A stretch of 51,508 bases of DNA from Chitinophagaceae bacterium (GTDB taxonomy: Bacteria > Bacteroidota > Bacteroidia > Chitinophagales > Chitinophagaceae), in NCBI GenBank assembly GCA_947447005.1, contig CANFHO010000005.1, positions 1 to 51,508 of the forward strand, read 5' to 3'. A model generated the notes under the pieces. That model did no database searches. It was not told where the DNA came from and saw only the letters and a program-made list of their open reading frames with translations. Shown one piece after another: positions 5,756-43,792 of the stretch. The position numbers were made by a program, and so were the translations under genes. Position 1 is the first letter of the stretch; each line of letters starts with the position of its first letter.

Positions 5756-5910
5756 GGAGAAACGGGGAAACGGAGAAACGGAGAAACGGAACTTTTCTGT
5801 TGAAGGCAGGAAAAGAATAAGGCACGAGGCACAAGTGAAGTAAAATGAAATAATTTGGGATTGGTCTCCATCCATCTTTCAATTGTTTCATATAACTTGT
5901 GCCTCGTGTC
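5756..5910. repeat. Octad array plus heptad inverted repeat between M28 and PIP genes
   Basis: Four direct 8-bp units (GGAGAAAC, GGGGAAAC, GGAGAAAC, GGAGAAAC; 5756-5787) begin 3 bp after the M28 stop codon. They are followed by an inverted repeat: GGCACGAGGCACAAG (5821-5835) pairs at 14 of 15 positions with 5896-5910, and the second arm runs into a T-rich tract. The structure could terminate transcription. It is the same type as the array at 37846-38040. Confidence 0.85.
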
Positions 5911-5932
5911 TTTTTTATTTAAAATATACATT

Positions 5933-6958
5933 ATGAATTTGAAAAATTACGTTGGCATCTTTGTTCTTATCTGTTTACTTGGTGCATGTAAAAATGAAAA
6001 TGGAAATTCTTTAACAACGCGTGATTATTTTGCATCGCAGGATTCTGGTGTACAATCTGGAAATGCAAAATTCATCGAAATCGAAAGTTTTGGAAAGAAG
6101 TTTAAAGTATGGACAAAACGTTTTGGAAACAATCCATCCATCAAAATTTTATTATTAAATGGTGGCCCTGGTGCAACACACGAATATTTTGAATGCTTTG
6201 AAAATTTTCTTCCCCAGGAAGGGATAGAGTTCATTTATTACGATCAATTGGGTTGTGGTAATTCAGATAATCCGAATGATACAGCGTATTGGGATCTGCC
6301 AAGGTTTGTGGAAGAAGTAGAACAGGTAAGGGTTGCATTGAAATTGGACCAAAGTAATTTTTATTTATTGGGACATTCATGGGGTGGGATTTTGGCCATG
6401 CAATATGCCTTGAAATATCAGCAACACATGAAAGGGTTGGTCATATCAAACATGATGTCAAGTTGTCCTGATTATGGAAAGTATGCTGATAATGTTTTAG
6501 CAAAACAATTTGAAAAGCCCGTATTGGACTCCATACGTGCAATGGAAGCCCGCAATGATTTCGGTAACCCACAATACATGGGTTTGCTTCAGCCTCATTA
6601 TTATGAAAAACATATTTTGCGTCTTCCATCTGCATCCTGGCCAGAGCCAGTTCAAAGGTCTTTTGCCAAAATGAATCAGTCCTTATACGTAACAATGCAA
6701 GGCCCAAGTGAATTTGGTGTTTCCGGAAGACTCACACAATGGGATGTAAAAGCGCAGTTGCCAAATATTACCATTCCAACTTTGGTGATAGGTGCTCAAA
6801 ACGATACCATGGATCCTGAACATATGAAATGGATGTCGACTCAAGTGAAAAATGGAACTTATTTATATTGTCCCAATGGAAGCCATATGGCAATGTATGA
6901 TGATCAGCAAGTGTATTTCACTGGCTTGATCAAATTTTTAAATGCAAGCAGTAAGTAA
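5933..6958 (+). CDS. Proline iminopeptidase-like alpha/beta hydrolase lipoprotein (S33)
   Basis: The start is placed at the ATG at 5933 because it opens a lipoprotein signal (ICLLGAC, Cys22); the frame is open further upstream only through repeat DNA. The 341-residue protein shows the S33 signatures: oxyanion motif [13 protein letters not shown], nucleophile GHSWGG (Ser149), an acid in [12 protein letters not shown] (probably Asp291) and GSH with His318. Such enzymes release N-terminal proline or other residues from peptides. The lipobox places this one in the cell envelope, unlike cytoplasmic family members. Together with the M28 enzyme upstream it suggests extracytoplasmic peptide use. Exact substrate unknown. 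Confidence 0.87.
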
Positions 6959-7002
6959 GAATTCACACTGAACAATTAATTTTGAAGAATAAAATAGCAA
7001 GC

Positions 7003-10000
7003 ATGTTCAAAAAATCAAAAATCACTTTACCGGTTGTTTTATTGTTGGCCTTTTTTTCAACTGAAAAAACGCATGCTCAAAAAAAGCAATCAAAGCCGGC
7101 AATTGTAGCTGTTGAAAAACCAGCAGATCTGAACGAAACATTCAAGACACTTGTGTGGCGAAATGTAGGTCCAACAAGAGGTGGTAGATCTGTAACATCA
7201 TCAGGTGTAAAGGGAAATCCATTGACGTATTATATGGGCACTACGGGTGGTGGTGTTTGGAAAACAGAAGATGCAGGCTTGACCTGGAACAATATTTCTG
7301 ATGGATTTTTTAAAACCGGTTCAGTGGGTGCAGTTGCTGTATCAGAATCTGATCCAAATGTAATTTTTGTAGGCATGGGAGAACATGCCCCTCGTGGTGT
7401 GATGACATCATATGGTGATGGAGTTTATAAATCAACAGATGGGGGTGCTACCTGGAAGCATATGGGCTTGGATCTTACGCGACATATTTCCAACATTCGC
7501 ATACATCCATCAAACCCTGATGTGGTCTATGTTGCAGCGCAAGGAGCTTTACATGGAGCAACAACCGACAGAGGAATTTACAAGTCAGAAGACGGTGGTA
7601 AAACCTGGAAGAAAATTTTGTATGTAGATGAAAATACAGGTTGCGTGGATTTGAATATGGACATGAATAATCCACGGATATTGTATGCAGCGATGTGGGA
7701 TCACAGAAGATTGCCTTGGGCTGTTCAAAGTGGCGGAAAGGGTTGCGGATTGTACAAGAGTACAGATGGAGGGGAAACCTGGGAGAAGATCCAGAATGGC
7801 TTGCCAAAGGAGTTGGGCAAAATGGCAATCTCAGTTTCAAGGGCAAATTCAAATAAGGTATATGCATTGGTGGAAAGTGATACACAGAAAGAGCAAGGTG
7901 GATTGTTTGCATCTAATGATGGAGGCGGACATTGGACACGTGTGAGCAAGGATCACAGGGTGATTTCAAGAGCCTGGTATTATATTGAAGTATTTGCAGA
8001 CACCAAAGATGAAAATACAGTATATGTATTAGGTGCTGCAGGATTGAAATCTACTGATGGTGGTAAAACATGGAGCGATATCCGCGGCACACATGGTGAT
8101 TTCCATCAATTATGGATCAATCCGGATAATAACAAAAATGTTTTAATCTCTAATGATGGTGGTGCTTCCATTACATTCAATGGGGGTAAAAGTTGGTCGA
8201 CACAAAACAATCAGCCAACTGCTCAATTTTATCGCATCAATGTAGATGATGTTTTCCCTTATAGTATTTATGGTGGACAGCAAGACAATTCATCCGTCAA
8301 GATTGCAAGCAGAAATACATCTGGTGGTGGAATTACAGACAGGCAGTGGACATCTTCTGCAGGTGGTGAATCAGCCTTTCTTGCTTTCGATCCAAAGAAT
8401 CCTACATATGTAATGGGTGGAAGTTATCAAGGTACCATTGAGCTTTTGAATGCAGAAACAGGTGAAGGAGTTGGGGTGATGGTATATCCAGTACAGTATC
8501 AGGCAATGCAGCCCAAGGATATGCAATATCGTTTCAATTGGAACGCACCAATTACTTATTCAAAGCATGAGCCCAATGTATTTTATCATGCGGGAAACAG
8601 GTTGTTCAAGACAAAAGATATGGGAAGGTCATGGGAAGCCATCTCTCCAGATTTGACAACACATGATACAACTAAGATGGGCATCAGTGGATATCCTTAT
8701 ACGAACGAAGGTGCGGGTGGTGAGAACTATTGTACGATCACCTATGTGATGGAATCAGATAAGGAGAATGGAGTGATTTATACAGGAAGTGATGATGGAA
8801 TGGTGTATGTAACAAAAAATGGTGGCAAGGAATGGACGAACATATCACCAAAAGATTTAGGTGAAGCATTGATCAATGCCATTGAAGTTTCTCCTCATGA
8901 TCCAGCAACTGTATACATTGCAGCTACCAAGTATAAGTTCAATGATTTTACACCATTCATTTATAAGTCTGCTGACTATGGTAAAACATGGACCAAGATT
9001 GTGACTGGAATTCCTTATGGTGCAAATACACGCGTAGTAAGAGAAGACGATCAACGCAAAGGTTTGTTGTATGCAGGAACAGAAACAGGTTTATATGTTT
9101 CATATGATGCAGGTGCAAACTGGAGTAATCTTCAACTCAATCTACCTGTAACTCCTATTACCGATCTCAAATTGCATCATGGTAATTTAATAGCATCAAC
9201 CCAAGGACGTGCATTTTGGATTTTGGATGATGTGCAACCCATTCGCAATTATGATCAGACCAATAAATCTCTGGTAAAATTAATCCCCATGGGTGAAACA
9301 TACAGGGTATCAGGTTACAGTACGCTGGATAGAAATTTTAAACCTGCTGATGCGGATGATATAAAAACAACTTCTGCAAATCCTGCAACAGGTGCAGTAA
9401 TTTATTATGAGTTGGGTGATCAGGCGGATTCAATCAAGAAATTGACAATGGAGATCAAGGATGCAAATGGTAAAATCATGCGCTCGTTTAGCAACAAATC
9501 TATATCATTTCATACGAGCAATAATGCTTTCAGGAATGAGCCTATATTGCCAGTCAGAAAAGGACTGAATCGATTTGTGTGGGATATGCGCAGAATGGAT
9601 ATGCCAACTATAGATGATGTGTATATTGAAGGTAATTATTCAGGAGGAAGGTTATCTCCTGGAACATATACCATCACTTTGAAAGCGGATAGTGTTGAAC
9701 AGACCACATCTTTGGTTGTGAAAGCTGATCCAAGATTCAAGGCTACTACTCAAGATTATGCAGATCAGGATCAACTTTTGAGAAAAATTGAAGGTTCTGT
9801 TACAGATATACATGTGGCAGTTTCAAGGATGAGAAATCTTAAATCCCAATTGTCAACACTGATAACATTAATAGAGGATGATAAGTCGAAAGAGCCATTG
9901 GTGTCACTTTCAAAGAAAATCAATGAAAAGATTACAGCATGGGAAGAGGCATTGATACAGCCTAAAAGCCAGTCGTATGACGACGTAATCAACTTCGTAA

Positions 10001-10212: not shown

Positions 10213-10234
10213 CTTTAGATTAAAATGAAATTTG

Positions 10235-10261
10235 AAAGGGGGACTTCGGTCCCCTTTTTTT
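10235..10261 (+). terminator. Rho-independent terminator after the BNR gene
   Basis: A 10-bp stem (AAAGGGGGAC with GTCCCCTTTT, one G-U) closes a TTCG tetraloop and runs into seven T. It ends transcription of the 4.1-10.2 kb run and separates it from the GH43-like/sulfatase pair. Confidence 0.92.
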
Positions 10262-10359
10262 ATGATAGTGAAGGATTTTTCTTAACTTGAAACATAGATT
10301 ATATCCGAACTTCTACCGACTTTTATATTGTTTGCATTATCATTCAGTTGTCATTTTTT

Positions 10360-11383: not shown

Positions 11384-12856
11384 ATGAAAAAGATATCCAT
11401 ATTCATTTTATTCATTTTTGTGCTGATTTTACAGCAGTCGCATACACTTGTTGAAAAAAGGCCTCCAAACATTGTCATCATTTTTATGGATGATATGGGG
11501 TATGGTGATATTTCATGCAATGGGGCATTGGATATATATACGCCAGTGATGGATAAATTAGCGAGTGAAGGAATGCGCTTCACAAATTTTCTTTCATCAC
11601 AAGCTGTGTGCAGTGCGTCGCGTGCATCCTTGATGACAGGTTGTTATGCAAATCGTATAGGTATTTCAGGTGCATTGATGCCCAATAGTCCAATTGGTTT
11701 ATCGCAAAGTGAAACAACGATTGCTGAGTTGTTAAAACAAAAAAAATATGCAACAGGTATTTTTGGGAAATGGCATTTAGGAGATGCGCCTGAATTTCTT
11801 CCCTTGAATCATGGGTTTGATGAATATCTCGGATTGCCTTATTCAAATGATATGTGGCCTGTTGATTTTGATGGAATTCCTTCTAAAGCTGGAACAAATA
11901 AATCTAATTATCCTCCACTTGCATGGATTCATAATAATGAGAAAGCAGAACAAATCAACACTTTAGAAGATCAATCAAAGATAACAGGACGCATCACTGA
12001 TGCTGCTATTCAGTTTATCAAAAAGAATAAATCAAAACCTTTTTTTGCATACATTCCCAGCCCTATGCCCCACGTACCCATCAATGCATCTAGTGCATTT
12101 CGTGGAAAGAGTAAACAGGGTTTGTATGGAGATGTAATTCAGGAGATTGATTATTCCATAGGCAGAATCATGCAGACTTTAAAGCAAGAGGGCTTGGATG
12201 AGAATACACTTGTTATCGTAACCAGTGACAATGGACCATGGTTGAATTTTGGAAATCATGCAGGCAATGCGGGAGGTTTCAGAGAAGGAAAAGGTACGTC
12301 TTTCGAAGGAGGTCAACATGTACCTTGCATCATGAGATGGAAAGGAGTTATACCTGCCGGGGTTGTTTGTAACCAACTTGCATCAACCATTGATATTCTT
12401 CCAACCATCGCAAGTTTTACTGGAACAAAAGTAACAGAGAAAAAAATAGATGGCGTTGATATTTCTGCATTGCTAAAGGGTAATGTGAATGTAAGTCCAA
12501 GACAAACATTTTTATATTACTACAGAAAAAATTCTCTGGAGGCAGTAAGAAAAGGAAATTGGAAATTGGTATTTGATCATCCAGCAAGATCTTATATGAA
12601 TAAGCAACCAGGTAAAGACGGTTTTCCTGCGCAGGTGCCTGAAGATGCGCTGATAGCAAAAGCTTTGTATGATCTGCGTCGTGATCCTGGTGAGCAATAT
12701 GATGTGCAATTGTCTTTCCCAGAAATGGTAAAATCTTTGGAGGCTTTGGCTGAAGAAGCCAGAGTTGATTTGGGAGATGATTTGAATAAAAGAACCGGTG
12801 CCAATAACCGCGAACCTGGCAGGGTAGGAAAGATAAAAGATAAAAGTGAAAAGTGA
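11384..12856 (+). CDS. Exported sulfatase (arylsulfatase family) with C-S-A-S-R active site
   Basis: The 490-residue type I sulfatase has an N-terminal signal segment (1-21). Metal ligands Asp36-Asp37 (FMDDMGYGD) and the active-site Cys76 in CSASR are present; Cys76 would be converted to formylglycine. The consensus is CxPxR, here with Ala in place of Pro. Downstream motifs GKWHLG, VIVTSDNGPW and FREGKGTSFEGG match the family, which hydrolyses sulfate esters of glycans or small molecules. The last residues (KIKDKSEK) are encoded by the heptad array that follows, so the array has replaced or extended the original C-terminus. Its neighbour is the GH43-like lipoprotein. Confidence 0.92.
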   Translation: MKKISIFILFIFVLILQQSHTLVEKRPPNIVIIFMDDMGYGDISCNGALDIYTPVMDKLASEGMRFTNFLSSQAVCSASRASLMTGCYANRIGISGALMPNSPIGLSQSETTIAELLKQKKYATGIFGKWHLGDAPEFLPLNHGFDEYLGLPYSNDMWPVDFDGIPSKAGTNKSNYPPLAWIHNNEKAEQINTLEDQSKITGRITDAAIQFIKKNKSKPFFAYIPSPMPHVPINASSAFRGKSKQGLYGDVIQEIDYSIGRIMQTLKQEGLDENTLVIVTSDNGPWLNFGNHAGNAGGFREGKGTSFEGGQHVPCIMRWKGVIPAGVVCNQLASTIDILPTIASFTGTKVTEKKIDGVDISALLKGNVNVSPRQTFLYYYRKNSLEAVRKGNWKLVFDHPARSYMNKQPGKDGFPAQVPEDALIAKALYDLRRDPGEQYDVQLSFPEMVKSLEALAEEARVDLGDDLNKRTGANNREPGRVGKIKDKSEK

Positions 12857-12944
12857 AAAATGAGAACAGCCAAATCGATTAGCTGTTAATTTTTCTCTTT
12901 TCACTTTTCTCTTTTCACTTTTCTCTTTTCACTTTTCTCTTTTA
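12833..12944. repeat. Heptad arrays in inverted orientation between sulfatase and hom
   Basis: The left array is five 7-bp units (ATAAAAG, ATAAAAG, TGAAAAG, TGAAAAA, TGAGAAC; 12833-12867). The sulfatase stop codon TGA (12854-12856) is the first triplet of unit four. After a central AACAGC/GCTGTT stem, the right array (12889-12944) is pyrimidine-rich with a 14-bp period (TTTCTCTTTTCACT) and ends in the hom stop codon. The two arms can pair into a long A/T-rich hairpin between the convergent genes. Confidence 0.9.
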
Positions 12945-14201
12945 AAGTTCCATTCCTGCAAGAGAGAGGCTCATCTTTTTAAGTTCTTGCAATTCCATAT
13001 CTTCTACGATACCATTGGGCAACATAATGAGTGATGTATTGTTTGTTTTCCACCAATTGCTTGATTCCAATGTTTTGTAAGGGATGGTTCCAACAAGATA
13101 GCTGCGTTCGTTTCCAGAGTGCCATTCTTCAACACTCACAAATTCATCTTTAGGGATTTTTGAAAAATCATCAAAGCTCAGGTACACGCGCATGTGAAAA
13201 TCATCACTTAATTCACCAGGAGCATGTTGATTGCTTTTCTTGTATTCATATTTATATCCATATCTCAATGCTGCAATATCACTTAACACTGCTGAGGCAG
13301 TTGGAAAGCTACCTGCACCTTTTCCATAAAAAAATTGCTTGTCGGCAAAACCAGTTTCAATAACTACGCCATTGTATTCATTTTTAACGAAAAACAGATG
13401 ATCTGCCTGGTCAATGAATTGAGGCAATACGAATGTTGCCACTTTACCATTGTTCAATTTTTTTGCTTGCGCTACCAGTTTGATGGATTGATTTTTTGAT
13501 TGTGCCACTTGCGCATCCAGCTCATTGATTTGTGTAATGCCATTGAATAACAATTTGTCGATGGTTGTATTGACTCCATAGCTATGGGTAAGGAGCAATA
13601 CCCATTTGTTTACTGCATCATATCCTTCAATATCCAGGGTTGGGTCTGTTTCTGCAAAACCAAGTTGTTGTGCAAGCAATAAAGCTTCCTTGAAACTCAA
13701 ATGTTCTTCAAACATTTTTGTTAGAATGAAGTTTGTTGATCCATTTACAATGGCCTTGATGGAATGCAAGAGATCATTGTCATAATATTCTTCAAGGTTT
13801 CTGATAACAGGAATGGAAGCACATGCAGATGCTTCGTATAGCAAAGATCTTCCAGTTGTATTTTGAAGTTCAATCAATTCCGGCAAGTGCTCAGAAAGCA
13901 TTTTCTTGCTGGCACTCACAACATCCTTGCCATTTTTCAATGCAGTTGATACAATATGATATCCCACTTCACTATCATTGATTACTTCAACAATTACATT
14001 GATTTCTGGGTCATTCAGAAGATCATACATGTCTGTTGTGAAAAGCTCTGCAGGAGCATTTCTTTTCTTGTTTGTATTCTTAATACAAACTCTTTTGATA
14101 CTTGCTTTTAATGAAGGTGTTTGGTGCAATACTTTGTAAAGTCCTTCTCCAACAACTCCGAATCCGAATAGTCCAATGACCAATGTTTTTTCTGATCCCA
14201 T
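12942..14201 (-). CDS. hom: Homoserine dehydrogenase
   Basis: The 419-residue enzyme reduces aspartate semialdehyde to homoserine, the branch point to methionine and threonine. Seen are the nucleotide-binding GLFGFGVVG (10-18), the catalytic-region motifs NGSTNFI, ETDPTLDIEGYDAVNK (Asp and Lys of the active site) and GKGAGSFPTASAVLSD. It is monofunctional: there is no aspartokinase domain. The C-terminus (about 335-419) is the size of an ACT-like regulatory part, but the motif is not clear. The ATG lies 6 bp behind the metX stop codon, so the two genes form one transcript under the upstream SAM riboswitch. Confidence 0.93.
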   Translation of the reverse strand: MGSEKTLVIGLFGFGVVGEGLYKVLHQTPSLKASIKRVCIKNTNKKRNAPAELFTTDMYDLLNDPEINVIVEVINDSEVGYHIVSTALKNGKDVVSASKKMLSEHLPELIELQNTTGRSLLYEASACASIPVIRNLEEYYDNDLLHSIKAIVNGSTNFILTKMFEEHLSFKEALLLAQQLGFAETDPTLDIEGYDAVNKWVLLLTHSYGVNTTIDKLLFNGITQINELDAQVAQSKNQSIKLVAQAKKLNNGKVATFVLPQFIDQADHLFFVKNEYNGVVIETGFADKQFFYGKGAGSFPTASAVLSDIAALRYGYKYEYKKSNQHAPGELSDDFHMRVYLSFDDFSKIPKDEFVSVEEWHSGNERSYLVGTIPYKTLESSNWWKTNNTSLIMLPNGIVEDMELQELKKMSLSLAGMEL

Positions 14202-15294: not shown

Positions 15295-15331
15295 CACTAT
15301 GAAAATGTTATTTGTCAAGCGAGAGGTCTGA

Positions 15332-15438
15332 CTTATCTGTCCCCGCATTTGCGGAGCTGGATTTGACACCTTATTACTTGTTAAGTAACAGGTTGTCAAG
15401 GCTTCATCGGGCCAATTCCCTCTGCCTTTCTGGATAAG
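15332..15438 (-). promoter_or_regulatory. SAM-I (S-box) riboswitch controlling metX-hom
   Basis: The minus strand shows the hallmark S-box core: 5' P1 strand CTTATC, then AGAGGGAATTGGCCCGATGA, then CAACCTGTTAC, GGTGTCAAATCC, a P4 hairpin CTCCGC-AAAT-GCGGGG, and the closing 3' P1 strand GATAAG. It binds S-adenosylmethionine. With the downstream terminator it should stop transcription of metX and hom when SAM is plentiful. The assignment rests on conserved core sequence and pairing of P1 and P4. Confidence 0.95.
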
Positions 15439-15456
15439 ATTATAAAAGAACTGATG

Positions 15457-15551: not shown

Positions 15552-15585
15552 GGAAAAAAGGGAAAGAGGCAGGGAGGCAAAGAGG
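15552..15585 (+). repeat. Octad array in the uvrA leader
   Basis: Four 8-bp units in register (GGAAAAAA, GGGAAAGA, GGCAGGGA, GGCAAAGA) followed by GG. The unit is nearly the same as that of the arrays at 27298 and 30829, but this one lies upstream of a gene rather than after a stop codon. Confidence 0.75.
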
Positions 15586-26600: not shown

Positions 26601-27295
26601 GTGTTGCAGGGCAAACATTCATTTGGGATTTTGGCGATGGCTCTGCAAAATATACAGGTTCAAATCCTCCTGCTCATTTGTACAGTCAACTGGGTGATTA
26701 TACAGTTACCCTAATTGCCATCGATCCTGCAACTTGTAATGGGGCGGATACGTTGAAATATAATATTTCTGTGAAACCCAAACCAGTAGCAAGTTTCAGC
26801 GTTAGTCCCGACCCAGCACAGGAGAATACCCCAACTAAATTCACCAATGTATCCAGTGGGGCCAAAACATATGAATGGAATTTTGGGGATGATGATACTT
26901 CAAGTGCCATCACTCCAACACACTTGTATCAAAAAACAGGAAGTTTTAATGCATGTTTGGTGGCTATATCTGAATTCGGATGTACTGATACAACTTGTCA
27001 TCCTGTAGGTGCTATCATCAGTGATGTTGTTGATGTTCCCAATGCTTTCACACCGAACGGAGATGGAATCAATGATAAGGTGTATGTGAGAGGGTTTGGC
27101 ATCGCTCAGATGAATTTCAGGGTGTATAACCGATGGGGGCAACTCATGTTTGAGTCTGCAAGTCCATATTATGGCTGGGATGGAAAATTCAAGGGCGAGT
27201 TGCAACCCATGGATGTATATGCTTATACCTTGATTGTTGCATTTGGTGATGGCAGTACTGTGACGAAGAAAGGAGATATTACTTTAATTAGATGA
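23642..27295 (+). CDS. Large T9SS type B secreted protein: DUF7948-like, SBBP-type propeller, PKD repeats
   Basis: The 1217-residue protein has a signal peptide (1-22, ending MHAQ). Residues about 28-260 resemble the DUF7948 N-terminal domain (FTENKGQWKEDF start, LVIDPVLVFSTYTG end). Residues about 265-760 contain SBBP-like propeller repeats (FSTYLGGSGDE, STYLGTSQTD). Four PKD units follow (WDFGDGSP, WDFGDNSP, WDFGDGSA, WNFGDDDT). The end is a type B T9SS sorting domain: PNAFTPNGDGINDKVYVRG, FRVYNRWGQLMFES, WDGKFKGELQPMDVYAYTL. It is presumably secreted by T9SS and attached to or released from the cell surface as an adhesin or structural protein. A PorP/SprF partner gene follows at 27370. Confidence 0.92.
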   Translation: MQRHVIILLFFIGLLYTESMHAQSYYALDFTENKGQWKEDFSYKTTIGNGTVFIRSNGITVLKNHPDDQASFLEYTHAHGEVSQNGLNRGDQMGNTPGENIVIRSHAYTMNFLGTDASSQFVSEKPTGEVANYFIGDDKKTWKTDVKSYGAVLQKDLYAGIDVRYYSNGDKLKYDLIVHAGSSPSKIVMKYEGVDKLSMKEGQLIIKTSVGDAKELIPYAYQVINGLKKEVKCSYDLLGDQVRFKLIGYDSRADLVIDPVLVFSTYTGSKSSNWGYTAAPGPDGSLYAGGIVFATGYPITLGAFQATFNGGTGIGTIRGIDIGLTRFSPDGKSRIFSTYLGGSGDEFPHSIYVDPQGNAVILGRTTSSNFPVVNGNKVGVLGNTDIFVTKLSADGKSLIGSVVVGGSGVDGANIDPSISPTGKSLLYNYGDNARSEVILDKSNNIYIASCTQSKDFPKRNTTTNYGSLQDGVVMKFSPDLSTIYYSAIIGGNDDDGAFVLSLNPLTNDLYVGGATKSTDLQGNKTGVISGSLLGGIDGFVTVLNNAGVLQKSTYLGTSQTDIVYGVQFDQKGFPYIMGISLGSWPVKNASFSNAGSKQFIAKLKPDLSDFVYSTVYGTAALVPNISPVAFLVDRCENVYVSGWGGRLNLCMTGSFDQKTVGTTGLPIVGGPIQNYTDNKDFYFFVLQKDAAAQLYGSFFGQQGGEGDHVDGGTSRFDSKGAIYQAVCSNCGGSNICSRDPIRRAMIITPGVVAPVNAALGSGTAGECNLAAFKINFEFEGVKAGALSSIDGIPHDTSGCFPLKVDFSDTVDIGKSYQWDFGDGSPIYNGTTAEVSHTYTTAGNFRARLVSTDPTRCITTDTSYVTIRVRKDKAIILASGAKLPPCLSLAYRFNNNSVPSTGTVFTDTSFVWDFGDNSPLVKMGKLGVDHTYPAAGTYKVKLILNDTTFCNAFDVYQFNISISPLVKANFSTPGVGCKPHLAEFSNTSVAGQTFIWDFGDGSAKYTGSNPPAHLYSQLGDYTVTLIAIDPATCNGADTLKYNISVKPKPVASFSVSPDPAQENTPTKFTNVSSGAKTYEWNFGDDDTSSAITPTHLYQKTGSFNACLVAISEFGCTDTTCHPVGAIISDVVDVPNAFTPNGDGINDKVYVRGFGIAQMNFRVYNRWGQLMFESASPYYGWDGKFKGELQPMDVYAYTLIVAFGDGSTVTKKGDITLIR

Positions 27296-27297
27296 TA

Positions 27298-27329
27298 GGC
27301 AAAGAGGCAAGGAGGCAAGGAGGAGTGGA
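27298..27329 (+). repeat. Octad array between T9SS cargo gene and porP/sprF-like gene
   Basis: Four 8-bp units (GGCAAAGA, GGCAAGGA, GGCAAGGA, GGAGTGGA) start 2 bp after the cargo stop codon. The gap to the partner gene is only 74 bp, so the array sits inside a likely operon. There is no inverted arm. Confidence 0.8.
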
Positions 27330-29722: not shown

Positions 29723-30787
29723 ATGGTAAGAGAAGATGTTTTGAAGGCTTTGTCGACTGTTCAGGAGCCTGATTTGAAGAAAGACCTGGTCACCTTGAAC
29801 ATGGTAAAAGACATTGTAGTGGATGAAAGCAGGGTGTCTTTCATCATAGAATTAACAACCCCTGCTTGTCCGATGAAGGAATTGATTAAGCGGGATTGTA
29901 TTCATGCCATTCATACACATATGGGCGCAGATTTGGATGTGAATGTCCAGTTCACGTCAAATACAACTTCGTTGAGAAGTGATATTGGAAATGTATTGCC
30001 AGGTGTAAAGAATATTATCACGGTAATCAGCGGAAAGGGTGGCGTTGGTAAGTCAACTGTAGCTGCCAACCTTTCACTTGCTTTGTCGCAACAAGGTGCC
30101 AAGGTAGGCTTGATGGATGCGGATATTTATGGCCCAAGTGTACCTATTATGTTTGGTGTTCGCGGTCAGCGTCCGTTGATGATGGAAGTGGAAGGAAAAG
30201 AGAAGATCGTACCATTGGAACAGTATGGAATTAAATTGATTAGCATTGGTTTGTTGGTGGATGAAAAAAGTGCAGTGGTATGGCGTGGCCCGATGGCCAG
30301 CAGTGCCATTCGTCAATTTGTAACTGATGTACATTGGGGAGAATTGGATTATTTGGTAATCGATATGCCACCAGGCACAGGTGATATTCATTTAACTTTA
30401 ATACAGACCATCCCTGTTACAGGCGCTGTGGTAGTCACCACACCTCAAGAGGTTGCCTTGGCAGATGCCAAGAAGGCCATTGCTATGTTCGGTCAGGCAC
30501 AAATCAATGTGCCCATTATCGGGCTCGTAGAGAACATGGCGTGGTTTACACCAGAGGAGCTTCCCGAGAATAAATATTACATCTTTGGAAAGGATGGCGG
30601 AAAGAACCTGGCGGATCAGTTTGATTTGAATTTCCTGGGACAAATACCATTGGTTCAAGGCATCAGAGAGGGTGGAGATAAAGGATTGCCAGTAATGATG
30701 GGAGAGGATCAAATCAGTAAGCAGGCGTTTATGTCATTTGCTGCAGATACAATCAGGGCGGTGGCTGTGGCGAATGCGAAGAAGTGA
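29723..30787 (+). CDS. Mrp/ApbC-type Fe-S carrier P-loop ATPase with MIP18 (DUF59) domain
   Basis: The 354-residue protein has an N-terminal MIP18 domain (1-80, with TPACPMKELI) and a ParA/MinD-type ATPase domain: deviant Walker A GKGGVGKS (104-111), MDADIYGPSVP, IDMPPGTGD. The family carries Fe-S clusters for assembly on target proteins. The C-terminal CxxC pair that binds the cluster in canonical Mrp/Nbp35 is missing: the segment reads ENMAWFTPEELPENKYYIFG. Cys residues remain in the MIP18 domain. I recall this form in other Bacteroidota, so it may be a lineage feature. Confidence 0.92.
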   Translation: MVREDVLKALSTVQEPDLKKDLVTLNMVKDIVVDESRVSFIIELTTPACPMKELIKRDCIHAIHTHMGADLDVNVQFTSNTTSLRSDIGNVLPGVKNIITVISGKGGVGKSTVAANLSLALSQQGAKVGLMDADIYGPSVPIMFGVRGQRPLMMEVEGKEKIVPLEQYGIKLISIGLLVDEKSAVVWRGPMASSAIRQFVTDVHWGELDYLVIDMPPGTGDIHLTLIQTIPVTGAVVVTTPQEVALADAKKAIAMFGQAQINVPIIGLVENMAWFTPEELPENKYYIFGKDGGKNLADQFDLNFLGQIPLVQGIREGGDKGLPVMMGEDQISKQAFMSFAADTIRAVAVANAKK

Positions 30788-30794: not shown

Positions 30795-30860
30795 TAGGCA
30801 GTAGGGAATAGGCAGTAGGCAATAGTAAGGCAAAGAGGCAAGGAGGCAGGGAGTGAAGGA
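30795..30860 (+). repeat. Heptad then octad array after the Mrp gene
   Basis: Four 7-bp units beginning with a TAG triplet (TAGGCAG, TAGGGAA, TAGGCAG, TAGGCAA; 30795-30822) are followed by four 8-bp units (GGCAAAGA, GGCAAGGA, GGCAGGGA, GTGAAGGA; 30829-30860). The array fills the gap between two convergent genes and ends 7 bp before the stop codon of the minus-strand gene. Both period classes occur in one array. Confidence 0.9.
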
Positions 30861-36047: not shown

Positions 36048-36048
36048 G

Positions 36049-36477: not shown

Positions 36478-36621
36478 ACTGTTTTTTTTAGTGATGATCT
36501 TTTGAACTGATCGGCTCACCTGTAAATGAACCGACGCTCATTGAGGAAAGAAAATACAGAAGAAAAGTTCTGCAAAACTAGCTTTAATCTTTTATTTTTA
36601 AGTAAAATAATCTCTAAAGCA

Positions 36622-37845
36622 ATGTCAAAATTTCGCTTGTATACGTTCTTTTTTCTATTGATATCAGTTGGTATGCAGGCACAAAAAATTGCGCCTGGAG
36701 CAAATCGACTTGACCTCTATCTTCCGATACTCAAGGGAAAGCATGTGGCATTGTTTGCCAATCAGACTTCCATGGTGGGTAACACGCATGTGTTGGATAC
36801 CCTCCTTTCAAGAGGTATTCAAGTAAAGGTAATCTTTGGCCCGGAACATGGTTTTCGAGGAACGGCTGATGCCGGTGAAAAGGTAGGCAATCAGGTGGAT
36901 GCAAAAACAGGCATTCCTGTTATTTCATTATATGGTGTAAAACAAGCCCCATCAGCAGAAGATCTTGCAGGAATTGATATGGTAATATTTGATATTCAGG
37001 ATGTGGGAACCCGTTTCTACACCTATATTTCATCGCTGGAAGATTTGATGAATGCAGTTCTGCCTATGAAGAAAAAAATACTTATCCTAGACAGACCCAA
37101 TCCCAATGGACATTATGTAGATGGGCCTGTGTTGAACAAAGAATTTCATTCTCATGTTGGAATGCAACCTATACCTGTGGTGTATGGCATGACCATCGGA
37201 GAATATGCAAAAATGTTGATTGGTGAAAAATGGTTGAAGGATAATGCTGTCAACACCTATGATAGTCTGAAAAGAAAAGGAAAGGATCTTTTACAAGTAA
37301 TTCCATGCAGTGGCTATTCCCATAATTCAGTGTATTCCCTGCCTGTTAAACCTTCACCCAATTTACCAGATATGTCTGCCATTCTTTGGTATCCTTCTAC
37401 CTGCTTCTTTGAAGGAACGGTATTGAGCGAAGGTAGGGGAACAAAGAAACCCTTCCAATATTTTGGACATCCCTCCCTCCCTTCTAATTTGTTTTCATTC
37501 ACGCCTGTTTCCATGCCAGGAGCAACCGCTCCCAAGTTGGTGAATCAAAAGTGCTATGGATGGAATCTTTCTGCTGAACCCAATGAAGTCAGAAAAAAAG
37601 TAAACAACCGAATTCAATTGTCGTATTTGATCAATGCCTATAAACTCTTCCCCGACAAAGAACATTTTTTCATCATGCCTAAGTCTGGCGACATGAAAGC
37701 TTCTTTCTTTAATAAGCTGGCGGGCAATGAGGAATTAATGCTTCAAATCATCGCTGGAGAGTCTGAAGAAAATATCCGCAAATCCTGGGAGCCTGAATTA
37801 ACAGAGTTTAAGTTAATACGGAGGAAGTATTTGATTTATAGGTAG
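36622..37845 (+). CDS. DUF1343 (NamZ-like) exo-beta-N-acetylmuramidase, exported
   Basis: The ATG at 36622 opens a signal peptide (MSKFRLYTFFFLLISVGMQAQ); the frame before it is not protein-like. The 407-residue protein shows the DUF1343 pattern: VALFANQTSMV, IFGPEHGFRGTADAGEKV, PVISLYG, IDMVIFDIQDVGTRFYTYISSL, ILDRPNPNG, WYPSTCFFEGTVLSEGRGT. The characterised member NamZ releases N-acetylmuramic acid from the non-reducing end of peptidoglycan fragments. A periplasmic role in muropeptide recycling is therefore likely. Its stop codon runs directly into the large heptad array at 37846. Confidence 0.88.
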   Translation: MSKFRLYTFFFLLISVGMQAQKIAPGANRLDLYLPILKGKHVALFANQTSMVGNTHVLDTLLSRGIQVKVIFGPEHGFRGTADAGEKVGNQVDAKTGIPVISLYGVKQAPSAEDLAGIDMVIFDIQDVGTRFYTYISSLEDLMNAVLPMKKKILILDRPNPNGHYVDGPVLNKEFHSHVGMQPIPVVYGMTIGEYAKMLIGEKWLKDNAVNTYDSLKRKGKDLLQVIPCSGYSHNSVYSLPVKPSPNLPDMSAILWYPSTCFFEGTVLSEGRGTKKPFQYFGHPSLPSNLFSFTPVSMPGATAPKLVNQKCYGWNLSAEPNEVRKKVNNRIQLSYLINAYKLFPDKEHFFIMPKSGDMKASFFNKLAGNEELMLQIIAGESEENIRKSWEPELTEFKLIRRKYLIYR

Positions 37846-38040
37846 GCACAAGGCACAGGGCACGAGGCACAGGGCACAAGGCACAGGGAACGAGGCACAG
37901 GGCACGAGGCACAGGGCACAAGGCACAGGGCACGAGTTTGTGTACGGAAATAATTCAATTCAGTTGAATTTTTACATTGGCTGTTCCTTGTGCCCTGTTC
38001 CTTGTGCCCTGTACCTTTTGTTCTGTGCCTTGTGCCTTGT
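37846..38040. repeat. Largest heptad array, with inverted right arm, between namZ-like and fmt
   Basis: Thirteen consecutive 7-bp units (37846-37936) start at the base after the stop codon. They follow the cycle GCACAAG, GCACAGG, GCACGAG, GCACAGG (28-bp higher period) with one variant, GAACGAG. After about 44 bp, with the palindrome AATTCA...TGAATT, the complementary arm (37981-38040) has units CTGTTCC, TTGTGCC, CTGTACC, CTGTGCC and one aberrant TTTTGTT. The arms can pair into a long hairpin between two co-directional genes. Confidence 0.95.
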
Positions 38041-38046
38041 TTAATG

Positions 38047-38054
38047 TATTTTTG
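38047..38054 (+). promoter_or_regulatory. Candidate -7 box directly before fmt
   Basis: TATTTTTG fits TAnnTTTG and ends 4 bp before the ATG at 38059. If used, the transcript would start at or within a few bases of the start codon. No good -33 element is seen in the repeat arm upstream. Confidence 0.4.
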
Positions 38055-38058
38055 TTTC

Positions 38059-39003
38059 ATGCCTACTTTAAAAGATTGCCGTATTGTTTTCATGGGTACG
38101 CCGGAGTTTGCAGTTGCTACACTCGACAAACTTGTTCTGGAGGGATGTAACATAGTTGGTGTGATTACAGCGCCCGATAAGCCCGCTGGCAGGGGCATGC
38201 AGCTCTCTCAAAGTGCAGTAAAGAAATATGCAGTGGAACATGGATTGCATGTTTTGCAACCAATCAAACTGAAAGACCCGGTGTTTATCGATGAGCTGAA
38301 ATCGCTCAATGCCGATGTACAAATCGTTGTGGCATTTCGTATGTTGCCTGAAATGGTTTGGAATATGCCACCCATGGGCACCATCAATTTGCATGGATCT
38401 GTACTCCCCAAATACCGTGGCGCAGCCCCCATCAATTGGGCAATTATAAACGGTGAAACAGAAACAGGTGTAACTACATTCAAATTGAAACATGAGATTG
38501 ATACGGGAGATGTGTTGATGCAGGAAATCATCCCCATTACAGATTCCATGAAGGCCGGGGAATTGCATGACATCATGAAGGAAATCGGTGCAAACCTGAT
38601 TCATCAAACACTTGAACAATATTGTTCCAACACCTTGATGCCAAAACCGCAGATACAACTGAGTCAAACAGCCATGGATGAAATCCCGTCTGCACCTAAG
38701 TTGCATACAGATACCTCGCGTATCGATTGGAATTTGCCAGCTAAAAAAATATTTAATCTTATCCGTGGATTATCACCTTACCCAGCAGCATTCACGCAAT
38801 TGGATGGCAAGTTGCTGAAGATTTACAAAGCTTCATATGTCAATACAGAACCCAATCTCTCTCCAGGAGAATACAAAACAGATGGAAAATCATTCCTCCA
38901 ATTCGCTGCAGCAGATGGTTGGGTCAATATCCTCGAACTCCAACTGGAAGGGAAAAAACGAATGGAGGTGGATGCTTTCTTGAGAGGACACAGATTTAAA
39001 TGA
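38059..39003 (+). CDS. fmt: Methionyl-tRNA formyltransferase
   Basis: The ATG at 38059 precedes the usual beginning CRIVFMGTPEFAV; the frame extends upstream to 37990 only by reading through repeat DNA. The 314-residue enzyme formylates Met-tRNA(fMet) with 10-formyl-THF. Seen are ITAPDKPAGRGM, the catalytic-site segment INLHGSVLPKYRGAAPINWAII (Asn, His), IDTGDVL (Asp) and the C-terminal OB-like domain (about 205-314) starting IDWNLPAKKIFNLIRGLSPYP. Its stop codon TGA is the first triplet of the heptad array at 39001. Confidence 0.96.
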   Translation: MPTLKDCRIVFMGTPEFAVATLDKLVLEGCNIVGVITAPDKPAGRGMQLSQSAVKKYAVEHGLHVLQPIKLKDPVFIDELKSLNADVQIVVAFRMLPEMVWNMPPMGTINLHGSVLPKYRGAAPINWAIINGETETGVTTFKLKHEIDTGDVLMQEIIPITDSMKAGELHDIMKEIGANLIHQTLEQYCSNTLMPKPQIQLSQTAMDEIPSAPKLHTDTSRIDWNLPAKKIFNLIRGLSPYPAAFTQLDGKLLKIYKASYVNTEPNLSPGEYKTDGKSFLQFAAADGWVNILELQLEGKKRMEVDAFLRGHRFK

Positions 39004-39075
39004 AGAATGAAGAATGAAAAATGAAGAGCGGAATAGCCAATTCTTCATTTTTCACTCTTCTTTTTTCACTCTTCA
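39001..39075. repeat. Heptad arrays opened by both stop codons between fmt and its convergent neighbour
   Basis: On the plus strand the units TGAAGAA, TGAAGAA, TGAAAAA, TGAAGAG (39001-39028) begin with the fmt stop codon. On the minus strand TGAAGAG, TGAAAAA, AGAAGAG, TGAAAAA, TGAAGAA begin with the stop codon of the opposite gene at 39075. The two arms are complementary in register, including a perfect 13-bp stretch, around a loop of about 14 bp. The array fills the whole intergenic space. Confidence 0.93.
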
Positions 39076-39612
39076 TTTAAGGTATTTCCCCAACCACAAC
39101 CCTACAAAACCCCATCCCAACAATGCATCCAGCAAATCCATGAAAATGTCTGTGCCGTGATACCAGATATAATTGGTATATGCATGATTGAAGAAACCGA
39201 TCAATCCAACTGTCAGCGAAACAGATAGAATGGTTTTGAATCCAGTGATATTTGCCTTGCTCAACAAGGAAATGAAAAGATACATAATGAGTATATTTAC
39301 CAACAAACCTCTGAGGATATTCATACCCATGTCGTTTTTAGACGATGTAGTATAATTAATGACGGCGGATGGCTTACCCACATTATCCGCTGCACATTTC
39401 ATCTGCGCCTCAGCTCCCAATGAAGGATCCGCAAGCGGTATGGCATATTTGCCAGTTTTCAATCCTGCACTTGCCAATACACTGAGTATCGTGTCTTGGT
39501 GAGGAGTGTATTGGTGCTCAGCTTTGTGGAGGTCCAATGCTGCCTGTGACATGAACTGCCAGACGAATAAAATGATAGCTGCTACAATTGTTGCAATTAG
39601 TGTGCGTTTCAT
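39073..39612 (-). CDS. Small membrane protein with four probable helices, unknown function
   Basis: I do not recognise this 179-residue protein. It has an N-terminal hydrophobic segment (about 6-26), a polar extracytoplasmic-looking stretch (about 30-95, with one Cys) and three further hydrophobic segments (about 98-116, 122-144, 158-175). The last one is Gly/Leu-rich (LLDALLGWGFVGLWLGKYLK). It starts 45 bp from divergent pepT and ends at the heptad array shared with fmt. No motif suggests an enzymatic role. Confidence 0.7.
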   Translation of the reverse strand: MKRTLIATIVAAIILFVWQFMSQAALDLHKAEHQYTPHQDTILSVLASAGLKTGKYAIPLADPSLGAEAQMKCAADNVGKPSAVINYTTSSKNDMGMNILRGLLVNILIMYLFISLLSKANITGFKTILSVSLTVGLIGFFNHAYTNYIWYHGTDIFMDLLDALLGWGFVGLWLGKYLK

Positions 39613-39657
39613 GATGATTGTTTTGATAAATTTAGCAATTTACAATCAAATCAAGAA

Positions 39658-40890: not shown

Positions 40891-40968
40891 TAAACAACTT
40901 TATCATCTCATTAATAATTAAAGTTGCATCTTCATGTAGTGCAAAAGGCTTTAAGAATGTTTTCTCAT

Positions 40969-40976
40969 TAAATTTG
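40969..40976 (+). promoter_or_regulatory. Candidate -7 box for exbB-exbD
   Basis: TAAATTTG is an exact TAnnTTTG match ending 14 bp before the ATG at 40991. It supports that ATG, since the TTG at 40985 would leave an 8-bp gap. No clear -33 element. Confidence 0.5.
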
Positions 40977-40990
40977 TTCAAACTTTGTCT

Positions 40991-41680: not shown

Positions 41681-41686
41681 TCATTC

Positions 41687-42085
41687 ATGCAAATCAGAAA
41701 AAAATATAAAGGAGAAGCAGAGGTTTTTACAGAAGCCCTGAATGATATTTTATTCATACTTCTCATGTTCTTTCTGATTGTATCAACCCTTGCAAATCCT
41801 AATGTAATCAAGCTTTCACAGCCTAAATCACAGGGCGACACCAAGGCAAAACAAAATGTGGTTGTATCCATCGATGCCAATAAACAATTTTATGTAGGTA
41901 CAACGCCAGTTCCGTTTGATTCATTGAAGTCCATGCTGCAACCCGCCATCAGCAAAGAAAAGACCGAAATTCCCACCATCGTAATCAATGCAGATAAGAC
42001 TGTTGATATTGAATCTGTTGTTGGTGTCATGCGTATTGCAAAAGAATTGGGTGCAAAGACGGTGTTGTCGGTGGAGAAAAATTAA
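41687..42085 (+). CDS. exbD: ExbD/TolR-family biopolymer transporter
   Basis: The 132-residue protein has one transmembrane helix (about 18-37, LNDILFILLMFFLIVSTLA) with Asp20 at its N-terminal end, the proton-carrying residue of the family, and a periplasmic domain (40-132) ending VVGVMRIAKELGAKTVLSVEK. It forms the stator with ExbB coded 6 bp upstream. It is followed by a short heptad-like tract and the convergent prmC gene. Confidence 0.93.
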   Translation: MQIRKKYKGEAEVFTEALNDILFILLMFFLIVSTLANPNVIKLSQPKSQGDTKAKQNVVVSIDANKQFYVGTTPVPFDSLKSMLQPAISKEKTEIPTIVINADKTVDIESVVGVMRIAKELGAKTVLSVEKN

Positions 42086-42089
42086 GATA

Positions 42090-42110
42090 CAGCCAGGCAC
42101 AGGGTACAAG
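42090..42110 (+). repeat. Short heptad tract between exbD and prmC
   Basis: CAGCCAG, GCACAGG, GTACAAG in register, nearly the unit of the large array at 37846. Only three units; weak alone, but in the same kind of place. Confidence 0.5.
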
Positions 42111-42126
42111 GATTTTAAAACAAATT

Positions 42127-43005: not shown

Positions 43006-43009
43006 AACC

Positions 43010-43017
43010 CAAATGTA
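43010..43017 (-). promoter_or_regulatory. Candidate -7 box of prmC
   Basis: The minus strand reads TACATTTG, an exact TAnnTTTG match ending 4 bp before GTG 43005, implying a nearly leaderless mRNA. It stands back to back with TAACTTTG (43025-43032) for the opposite gene. Confidence 0.45.
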
Positions 43018-43024
43018 AAACAAT

Positions 43025-43032
43025 TAACTTTG
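43025..43032 (+). promoter_or_regulatory. Candidate -7 box of the IMPACT-family gene
   Basis: TAACTTTG fits TAnnTTTG on the plus strand, 80 bp before the ATG at 43113. No clear -33 element. Confidence 0.35.
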
Positions 43033-43112
43033 CGCACTTCCCAATTGATGGCATCGATTCAATTAAATTGATTTAAGATGTAAAATCATCCGTGGGTGGA
43101 AAATGAAAAGTC

Positions 43113-43733
43113 ATGGCAGACCCCTTTTATTATCAAACCATAGAAAAGTCAGCAGTAGCAGAATTTACAGACCGTGGAAGTAAATTCATCGCATATACAT
43201 TTCCCGTATATAGCATTGATGCATTTAAGGAAGTTCTGCAGCAAATGAAAAAAGAGCATCCCAAAGCTTCACATTATTGTTTTGCATATCGGATTGGTGC
43301 AGATGGAATGACTTTTCGTGTTTCGGATGCTGGTGAACCATCTGGAACTGCAGGCAGACCTATTCTTGGCCAAATTGACTCAAAAGGAGTTACCAATGTT
43401 TGTGTGATAGTTGTCCGTTATTTTGGTGGCACCTTGTTGGGTGTTCCTGGTCTGATCAATGCATATAAGACGGCTGCATCTTTTGCATTGCAGTTGAGTC
43501 CGATTCAACGTTTGCCCATTGAAGTCAAATATGAAATTCAATTTGATTATACCATCACCAATGATGTATTGAAAAATATCAAGAAGTTTAATTGCCATAT
43601 CATGAAACAGGACATGCAACTGTTCTGTATGTATGTGATTGGTATTCCGAAAATAAGTGAAATGGAAGCAGTTCATGCCTTTGAATCCATCCGCGGAGCA
43701 TCCATCAAAAAAATAAGCGATCCAGATTCCTGA
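43113..43733 (+). CDS. IMPACT/YigZ family protein
   Basis: The 206-residue protein has the UPF0029 domain (about 10-125): RGSKFIAYTFPVYS, HPKASHYCFAYRIG, DAGEPSGTAGRPILGQID and VRYFGGTLLGVPGL. A C-terminal ferredoxin-like domain (about 135-205) follows. Related proteins act in translation control (IMPACT) or are uncharacterised bacterial factors (YigZ). It is divergent from prmC, itself a translation gene. Function in bacteria is unproven. Confidence 0.93.
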   Translation: MADPFYYQTIEKSAVAEFTDRGSKFIAYTFPVYSIDAFKEVLQQMKKEHPKASHYCFAYRIGADGMTFRVSDAGEPSGTAGRPILGQIDSKGVTNVCVIVVRYFGGTLLGVPGLINAYKTAASFALQLSPIQRLPIEVKYEIQFDYTITNDVLKNIKKFNCHIMKQDMQLFCMYVIGIPKISEMEAVHAFESIRGASIKKISDPDS

Positions 43734-43757
43734 ATCGCTCTATTGATTTTTAGGTTT

Positions 43758-43792
43758 TCGACAATCGATTATCGAAAATGGGTTATTGATTA
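43758..43792. repeat. Heptad array between the IMPACT and zinc-ribbon genes
   Basis: Five 7-bp units in register (TCGACAA, TCGATTA, TCGAAAA, TGGGTTA, TTGATTA) end exactly at the stop codon of the minus-strand gene. The first part is also a near-perfect 20-bp palindrome (43757-43776) that could form a hairpin between the convergent genes. Confidence 0.7.

What the first reader, a model, noticed from the sequence alone, without database searches (positions are those of the whole stretch)
5756..43792. Family of intergenic tandem arrays with fixed 7-bp (or 8-bp) period but unrelated unit sequences
Ten places carry in-register tandem units: 5756, 12833, 15552, 19577, 27298, 30795, 37846, 39001, 42090 and 43758. 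The unit length is conserved (7 bp; 8 bp in the GGCAAGGA/GGAGAAAC type; both in one array at 30795) while the sequence changes from array to array (GCACAAG, TGAAGAA, TAGGCAG, TCGATTA, TTTCTCT). Most sit right after stop codons, and four have a complementary second arm. Conserved period with drifting sequence points to a process that copies short units, or to selection on a repeating structure, rather than to a dispersed element. Heptanucleotide STRR arrays of filamentous cyanobacteria are the nearest precedent I know. None is seen in the foreign-looking first 2 kb.
Basis: partly seen in the sequence, partly recalled or inferred. Interest (0 to 1): 0.72.

Follow-up and report, generated by a model that had tools for sequence, protein, structure and literature searches.

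The report
Species-specific 7-8-bp repeat hairpins after genes
A freshwater bacterium carries many short repeat arrays with 7- or 8-letter units right after its genes, often folded into hairpins, and a sister species has the same design written in different letters.

Summary
In 829 kb of the window's own genome (a Chitinophagaceae-type MAG), intergenic arrays occur at periods 7 (62) and 8 (52) and their multiples; period 9 has 6, all other periods 4 or fewer, shuffles 0-2. Of the ten places six are clear, two weak, two (19577, 43758) unsupported. The units are not unrelated: about eight purine-rich families recur. Arrays near stop codons have the purine strand in the mRNA (62 of 64), 32 of 32 hairpins are purine-loop-pyrimidine, and the main 8-bp family has fixed ends (46 of 53). 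Relatives read over the window's region have none. The closest relative has the same architecture in other units; one fully syntenic gene end carries a hairpin in both species, in different letters. Some arrays adjoin an AACAGCC core that resembles an old terminator. Best reading: arrays made by slippage and fold-back copying around terminators, in species dialects. The kind is known (heptamers of Xanthomonas, Nostoc, Beggiatoaceae), strand rule included; fixed ends and dialect change look new in the papers searched. What sets the dialect is unknown.

The parts
5759..5790 (+). 8-bp array GAAACGGR, 4 units, just after the stop of the M28 peptidase gene 4163-5752
   Evidence: TRF; scan; families; Pfam
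5819..5910 (+).
   Evidence: sequence; two GGCACRR units
12829..12863 (+). purine arm, 7-bp array (GATAAAA/GTGAAAA); contains the TGA stop of the sulfatase gene 11384-12856, whose last ~9 residues are array-encoded
12865..12887 (.). core AACAGCC ... AGCTGTT in the loop of the hairpin
   Evidence: sequence; enrichment of AACAGC at inner array ends
12891..12943 (-). pyrimidine arm (purine on - strand), 7-bp array AAAAGAG/AAAAGTG starting at the stop of the homoserine dehydrogenase gene 12942-14201(-)
15552..15585 (+). degenerate 8-bp array of the GGCARRGA family between divergent genes
   Evidence: TRF; unit parse
27297..27323 (+). 8-bp array A(GGCARRGA)3G right after the stop of gene 23642-27295
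30795..30825 (+). 7-bp array (TAGGSAR)4TAG after the stop of gene 29723-30787
30828..30853 (+). 8-bp array A(GGCARRGA)3G next to the previous one
37844..37933 (+). purine arm, 7-bp array GGCACRR starting at the TAG stop of the NamZ-like gene 36526-37845
37981..38041 (-). complementary pyrimidine arm of the same hairpin
38999..39027 (+). purine arm, 7-bp array ATGAARA overlapping the TGA stop of gene 37990-39003; this unit is rare here and common in the sister species G136
39042..39078 (-). complementary pyrimidine arm, reaching the stop of ORF 39073-39612(-)
42095..42111 (+). probable decayed two-unit GGCAC-family copy after the stop of gene 41687-42085
   Evidence: sequence only; below threshold

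Best explanation
These are members of a genome-wide family of short-unit (7-8 bp) tandem arrays that sit at the 3' ends of genes, often as hairpins, in part around an older intrinsic-terminator-like core. Shown: strict period, recurrent purine-rich unit families, fixed ends of the main 8-bp family, start at the stop codon with the purine strand in the mRNA, purine-loop-pyrimidine hairpins, absence in relatives over the window's region, and other unit dialects in the sister species. Inferred: (1) a short seed array of the current dialect is inserted or copied, guided by microhomology, between a stop codon and the terminator; (2) replication slippage in 7-8 nt steps changes copy number and scrambles A/G unit variants; (3) fold-back (intrastrand template-switch) copying makes or corrects the complementary arm; (4) selection keeps copies that do not break genes, that is, after stop codons (some arrays supply the stop), with purine-rich mRNA and a stem that can serve as, or stand in for, the gene's terminator, in both directions between convergent genes.
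For: Period excess against shuffles. Among 85 sense-purine arrays, 71.8% start within 10 nt of the stop against 11.4% for uniform placement inside the spacer, 0 of 200 simulations (arrays starting before the stop count as within, and the simulation could not place them there, so the contrast is somewhat inflated). Purine on sense 62 of 64; 58 of 60 with another filter. 32 of 32 hairpins purine-then-pyrimidine (one pair is probably one locus seen at two contig ends). Fixed phase: 5' extension of one base in 46 of 53, 3' extension of one base in 34 of 53. Neighbouring arrays in a locus share a family, 31 of 38 against 11 expected. AACAGC at the inner end of 15 of 112 arrays against 69 of 8171 intergenic windows; 0 at outer ends. 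No arrays of period 4-16 in about 337 kb (361 kb scanned, 24 kb of it twice) from nine relatives over the window's region. G136: other dialects; 11 of 11 stop-anchored arrays purine on sense. Locus B (end of an AcrB-family gene): G000 GAGAAAA hairpin, G136 ATGAARA hairpin, G101 GTTAACT-type array, ordinary GAGCAGCG/CGCTGC-type terminators in four species. Locus A: two relatives have stop-AAGGAAACAGCCAAT without an array where G000 has stop-array-GAAGAACAGCCAAT.
Against: Genes with arrays show no excess of classical intrinsic-terminator sites over their own shuffles (18 of 87 against 16 of 87; genes without arrays 136 of 555 against 63 of 555), so termination is not demonstrated; the 8-bp pyrimidine arm is poor in T. 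Unit order is not shared between unlinked arrays, so seed dispersal rests on fixed ends and shared grammar alone. Sharing of array positions between G000 and G136 is not significant (2 of 14 against 5 of 116, p=0.17), and one of the two shared ends has a different neighbour gene in G136. 97 of 112 arrays lack the core motif. The AACAGCCAAT match at locus A is only 10 bp. In G085 only 1 of 11 arrays starts within 12 nt of a stop. No strain-level data show an insertion or slippage event.
Confidence: 0.5

Rival explanations
1. Independent slippage only: each array grew on the spot from chance sequence, with no dispersal and no function, tolerated because 3' ends of genes are free of constraint.
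For: Unit order is not shared between loci and neighbouring loci do not share families more than chance. Heptamers recur in other Bacteroidota with other units.
Against: The same 8-bp grammar with the same start phase in 46 of 53 arrays and only about eight families genome-wide are hard to get from random seeds. Strand polarity 62 of 64 and absence from nine relatives over the window's region are also unexplained.
Confidence: 0.15
2. Regulatory binding-site arrays: each unit (for example AGGCARRGAG with overlapping ends, read in the mRNA) binds a protein, and whole numbers of sites explain the fixed phase; the dialect follows the protein's specificity.
For: Fixed phase at both ends, three or four units most common, sense-strand bias, species dialects. 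A binding protein was proposed for TAACTGA repeats in PMC4679880 (abstract and sections 3, 10, 24 seen).
Against: Several families of two periods in one genome; I know of no binding protein and searched for none; the paired complementary arms are not needed for it.
Confidence: 0.15
3. A mobile element (MITE or REP-type) moved in trans by a transposase, whose terminal repeats happen to be short tandem units.
For: Dispersal, defined ends, inverted pairs.
Against: Little homology between spacers once arrays are masked: 28 match rows over 2346 pairs, the best of them short palindromes. Unit order not shared. One Y1 transposase match in this genome, and 23 of 41 genus genomes have one or more, G125, whose 234 kb sample has no 7- or 8-bp arrays, included. 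Target duplications were not tested.
Confidence: 0.08
4. Templated synthesis: an enzyme with a short built-in template adds the units at exposed 3' ends, telomerase-like.
For: Fixed ends, random order of A/G variants, one grammar genome-wide, dialect differing between species.
Against: No match to the reverse transcriptase family PF00078 in this genome (5 of 41 genus genomes have one). Several families coexist in one genome.
Confidence: 0.04
5. Composition or assembly artefact.
For: Arrays are purine-rich and some lie at contig ends.
Against: Dinucleotide shuffles give 0-2 per period; most arrays lie inside contigs; the sister MAG shows the same architecture.
Confidence: 0.01

Closest known systems
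GGGAATC heptamer repeats of Xanthomonas and GGGGA(T/C)T repeats of Nostoc (PMC4692102; section 10 and found passages, part of the abstract among them, seen)
   Same: 7-bp units, intergenic, many copies; inverted pairs in 70 (Xcc) and 75 (Xac) cases; [quoted passage not shown]
   Different: One main G-rich unit per genome, read there as quadruplex-forming; here about eight units of 7 and 8 bp, and a sister species with other units.
TAACTGA heptamer repeats of Beggiatoaceae, Cyanobacteria and a few Bacteroidetes (PMC4679880; abstract and sections 3, 10, 24 seen)
   Same: Intergenic 7-bp tandem repeats, five Bacteroidetes included, in part mixed with other heptamers; patchy distribution.
   Different: Mostly just upstream of start codons in the main genome of that study, one unit, one indirect repeat only; here at stop codons, hairpins common.
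Long simple sequence repeats with heptamer excess (Mrazek 2007, known to me only through section 3 of PMC4679880) and STRR of filamentous cyanobacteria (recalled; listings only)
   Same: Excess of 7-bp units; slippage tied to a 7-nt polymerase contact was proposed there.
   Different: Here 8-bp units are nearly as common, and ends, strand and position are fixed.
DNA uptake sequence dialects of Neisseriaceae (PMC3630211; found passages, parts of the abstract among them, seen)
   Same: Species-specific dialects of a short dispersed motif, inverted pairs associated with terminators.
   Different: Single short motifs, not tandem, tied to transformation; no link to transformation tested here.

Membership tests
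Heptamer SSR/STRR kind (Xanthomonas, Nostoc, Beggiatoaceae type) | tandem units of 7 bp in excess over other periods | tested here: met
   p7 62, p14 59, p21 32; p8 52 is also in excess, an extension of the kind
Heptamer SSR/STRR kind (Xanthomonas, Nostoc, Beggiatoaceae type) | mainly intergenic and dispersed over the genome | tested here: met
   34 of 39 p7 and 23 of 24 p8 arrays intergenic; 53 arrays of one family in 829 kb
Heptamer SSR/STRR kind (Xanthomonas, Nostoc, Beggiatoaceae type) | strand rule: G/purine strand on sense after stops, on antisense before starts | tested here: met
   stops 58 to 2, starts 21 to 7; rule stated in PMC4692102
Heptamer SSR/STRR kind (Xanthomonas, Nostoc, Beggiatoaceae type) | one dominant unit sequence per genome | tested here: not met
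   two major and about six minor families; this makes it a variant, the period itself being the defining feature
Quadruplex-forming repeats | runs of three or more G in every unit | tested here: not met
   commonest units GGCAAGGA, GGCAAAGA, GAGAAAA have no GGG run; only minor variants do
MITE / REP-RAYT element | conserved sequence beyond the tandem units | tested here: not met
   no extended homology between array-bearing spacers with arrays masked
MITE / REP-RAYT element | target-site duplication | not tested
   no close strain with an empty site was available
Reverse-transcriptase-made repeats | RT gene in the genome | tested here: not met
   PF00078: 0 matches in own genome
Intrinsic (bidirectional) terminator | stem-loop followed by T-run at gene 3' end | tested here: inconclusive
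   stable stems (median -57 kcal/mol over 32 hairpins) and T-rich 7-bp pyrimidine arm, but no excess of classical terminator sites
Intrinsic (bidirectional) terminator | transcripts end there | not testable with these tools
   needs RNA 3'-end data

The most novel reading that the evidence does not exclude
Gene 3'-end hairpins of 7-8(-9)-bp units evolve in concert as a species-wide dialect: some trans-acting agent (a polymerase, nuclease or recombination pathway with sequence preference, or a binding protein) rewrites dispersed arrays to the same few units, so that sister species keep the architecture but change the letters throughout.
Probability: 0.13. Interest if true: 0.85.

Novelty: new variant of a known kind. 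Interest (0 to 1): 0.58.

Why it matters
Why 7-bp repeats prevail among the longer bacterial tandem repeats is an open question, left in the papers seen at 'polymerase slippage'. Here one genus offers species without arrays in the samples read, species with short ones and two array-rich sisters with different units, at alignable gene ends. That lets one separate birth, growth, arm-making and dialect change, and ask whether such arrays rebuild terminators.

Tried and rejected
Reverse transcriptase as the maker: no PF00078 match in this genome. RAYT/Y1 transposase: one match here, and 23 of 41 genus genomes have one or more. Loss of SbcCD as the cause: no sbcD match here, but also none in G053 (100% complete), whose syntenic stretch has no arrays, while array-rich G136 has sbcD: neither needed nor sufficient. 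Copying of multi-unit blocks between loci: no shared unit order beyond order-shuffles, 7-bp arrays 81 against 82.2, 12 against 15.8 and 3 against 2.1 at three, four and five units, 8-bp arrays 110 against 105.2, 5 against 7.3 and 1 against 1.8; no clustering of families between neighbouring loci (5 of 25 and 10 of 46, expected 6.4 and 11.8). A conserved loop (MITE): only short recurring cores and palindromes. Plasmids and phages: no blastn match of two array regions in plasmids, of one in phages (BLAST's low-complexity filter makes this weak). Rfam over the window: only a SAM riboswitch. Predicted terminators: inconclusive. Spread: the 8-bp pattern occurs in 1 of 41 genus genomes and 2 of 395 sampled phylum genomes, the own genome counted in both; the 7-bp pattern in 5 of 41, with 6, 3, 1 and 1 hits outside the own genome. 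At first I took this to mean arrays private to this species; G136 then disproved it. I also counted locus A as a site shared with G136 on both sides; its neighbour gene lies 3 kb away there, so I lowered the novel case from 0.15 to 0.13 and interest from 0.60 to 0.58. Paper searches: I saw no listed paper on sister-species dialects of such arrays or on fixed array ends; only PMC4679880, PMC4692102, PMC4666352 (abstract and outline only) and PMC3630211 were opened, and the library lacks most subscription journals. A recalled idea, integration of very short DNA fragments by illegitimate recombination, had no hit under its name and stays untested.
Full report
1. What is in the window. The window is one 51.5 kb contig of a 2.9 Mb, 169-contig genome. 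Its best named matches for one long protein are Chitinophagaceae/Chitinophagales MAGs. By my own scan, which scores matches of base i with base i+p at one threshold, intergenic arrays of the window occur only at periods 7 and 8 and their doubles; TRF at its lowest score also lists short hits of other periods. Six of the ten listed places are clear, 15552 and 42090 are weak members of families seen elsewhere in the genome, and 19577 and 43758 are not supported.

2. Genome-wide excess. I read 829 kb of the same genome in 41 stretches, the window included. The first 20 fetched stretches were picked by contig number, the next 20 partly from contigs with known pattern hits, so pooled density is biased. 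Intergenic arrays: p7 62, p8 52, p14 59, p16 30, p21 32, p24 19, p28 23; p9 6; every other period 3-30 has 4 or fewer; shuffled intergenic DNA 0-2. In the unbiased 451.5 kb: p7 34, p8 23. Composition does not explain the arrays.

3. Few recurrent families. The 114 arrays fall into GAGAAA type (44), GGCARRGA (42), GGCAC (7), GTGGAA (6), GAAACGG (5), TAGGCA (4), TTAGG (3), ATGAA (1) and 2 others; the family patterns were made after seeing the data. The 8-bp family has a fixed phase: of 53 arrays with at least two units, 46 extend exactly one base before the first full unit (A|GGCARRGA) and 34 exactly one base after the last, with three (20) or four (14) units most common and 17 the maximum. Several TAGGSAR arrays end with TAG, and GAGAAAA arrays tend to end after AAAA (31 of 48 without further extension). 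An array is thus roughly of the form x(Yx)n. Which variant follows which is not shared between unlinked arrays.

4. Position and strand. Of 647 genes with a stop codon, 89 have an array starting no later than 200 nt after it and 64 no later than 12 nt; 62 of those 64 have the purine strand in the mRNA, and the stop codon is often in register with the units (TAG|GCAARG, TAA|AAGAG). Uniform placement in the spacer would give 11.4% within 10 nt; 71.8% of 85 sense-purine arrays are (arrays that begin inside the gene count as within, which the simulation could not place). Within 60 nt before start codons the purine strand is on the antisense side in 21 of 28. Gene pairs with an array: convergent 24 of 119, tandem 19 of 200 and 21 of 214, divergent 7 of 119. 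In the window the sulfatase gene 11384-12856 reads into its array: its last residues (KIKDKSEK) and its stop are array-encoded, while three orthologs end earlier.

5. Hairpins and core. Of 112 arrays in one count, 59 are paired; 32 hairpins were found, all purine arm first; one pair, at the ends of contigs C4 and C8, is probably a single locus seen twice. Masked spacers have no extended homology, but AACAGC stands at the inner end of 15 of 112 arrays (GAGAAA 10 of 42, GGCAC 4 of 7, GGCARRGA 1 of 42) against 69 of 8171 intergenic windows. The full core AACAGCC-N(6-36)-GGCTGTT occurs in 20 of 41 genus genomes, 64 times in all and up to 13 times in one, against 15 in all and at most 1 per genome for the reversed control pattern; of five array-free loci printed, two or three are followed by a T-run and look like ordinary intrinsic terminators.

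6. Relatives. About 337 kb from nine relatives over the window's region (361 kb scanned, 24 kb of one relative twice; protein identities about 40-90%) hold no array of period 4-16. The 8-bp pattern occurs in this genome alone among 41 of the genus and in 2 of 395 of the phylum. Yet the closest relative, G136 (median 78% aa identity over 90 orthologs that passed a 60% filter), is array-rich too: in 500 kb p7 22, p9 16, p8 3, p14 36, with units ATGAARA, GTTTAAR and GTTGAAGRG (17, 14 and 7 runs of two or more; 1, 0 and 0 in G000), while the six G000 units tested give none in G136 and two short GDGAARR runs in G125. One GAGAAA-like hairpin does occur in G136 (L267:431-481), so the dialects are not wholly exclusive. 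G136's stop-anchored arrays are purine on sense in 11 of 11; its hairpins are 11 purine-first and 3 of mixed units.

7. Same site, different letters. Of 130 orthologous gene 3' ends compared, 2 have arrays in both species, 12 only in G000, 5 only in G136 (p=0.17: no significant excess of sharing). At locus B (between an AcrB-family gene and an AIM24-family gene, both in the same order in G136) G000 has a GAGAAAA hairpin, G136 an ATGAARA hairpin with AACAGCC, and G101 a GTTAACT-type array; by eye G108 and G117 show two or three such units; G121, G128, G131 and G135 have an ordinary GAGCAGCG...CGCTGC(T/C)C-TTTT terminator, G125 a GGGAACAGC...GCTGTTCCC one; the scan flags no array in the other 18 of 20 relatives read, some of which lack the same downstream gene. 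The other shared end belongs to the gene L017:1-639; its G000 neighbour, a short-chain dehydrogenase, lies about 3 kb away in G136, so it is not a conserved spacer. At the dehydrogenase's own end (locus A), G121 and G128 read stop-AAGGAAACAGCCAAT with no array, where G000 reads stop, 8-bp array, GAAGAACAGCCAAT. The array sits between the stop and what looks like an inherited core; the match is only ten bases.

8. Wider view. In 1.53 Mb from 108 other loci, nearly all Bacteroidota by title or kinship, intergenic arrays at a slightly higher threshold were p7 12, p8 2 and 1 each at 5, 6, 11 and 12, with units mostly unlike those here. In G085, 6 of 11 arrays lie nearer to a start than to a stop by eye, and 1 of 11 within 12 nt of a stop, so stop-anchoring is not universal.

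9. Mechanism. Fixed ends and few families call for seeds of common origin; random unit order calls for later turnover; complementary arms of one family call for fold-back copying; the strand and position rule calls for selection at gene ends or a transcription-linked origin. These steps are inferred. Reverse transcription, RAYT transposition and loss of SbcCD are not supported. Termination is plausible from locus B and from the T-rich pyrimidine arm of the 7-bp type, but the terminator count is inconclusive.

10. Known or new. The kind is known: PMC4692102 reports the same strand rule, stop-codon proximity and inverted pairs for one heptamer in Xanthomonas, and PMC4679880 reports heptamers in Bacteroidetes. 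New as far as these searches go: two periods and about eight families in one genome, fixed array ends, and different dialects in sister species, at one syntenic gene end directly.

Noticed in passing
window 15330-15440 (-): SAM riboswitch (RF00162, 84.9 bits) in the divergent spacer that also holds the weak array at 15552.
   Followed up: no
window 25-1137: The foreign-looking first gene has a MutH domain (PF02976, 68 bits), so it is perhaps a Sau3AI/MutH-type restriction enzyme (the enzyme name is my inference); a tRNA-like stretch near 1300 was not called by ARAGORN.
   Followed up: partly
L189:6354-6367, L192 near 217, L195 near 18456: A palindrome CCTGCCGAAGGCAG directly borders three GAGAAA arrays; related REP-like palindromes (TAGCCCCGAAGGGGCTT, GTTGCCTGAAGGCAAC) occur in array-bearing spacers of L018, L195 and L200.
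   Followed up: no
G136 loci L257, L259, L260, L261: The sister species also has 9-bp arrays (GTTTAGAAG, GTTGAAGRG; 16 in 500 kb), a period rare in the window's genome (6 in 829 kb).
   Followed up: partly
G304 L184: A single GGCAAAGAGGCAAAGAGGCA in another family of the class, beside other octamer-like runs (CGCAAAGA, CACCTTAGAGCCTTAG).
   Followed up: no
G000 contigs C4, C8, C14 starts: Arrays lie at contig ends, so the assembly may break in them; C4 and C8 seem to overlap there.
   Followed up: no
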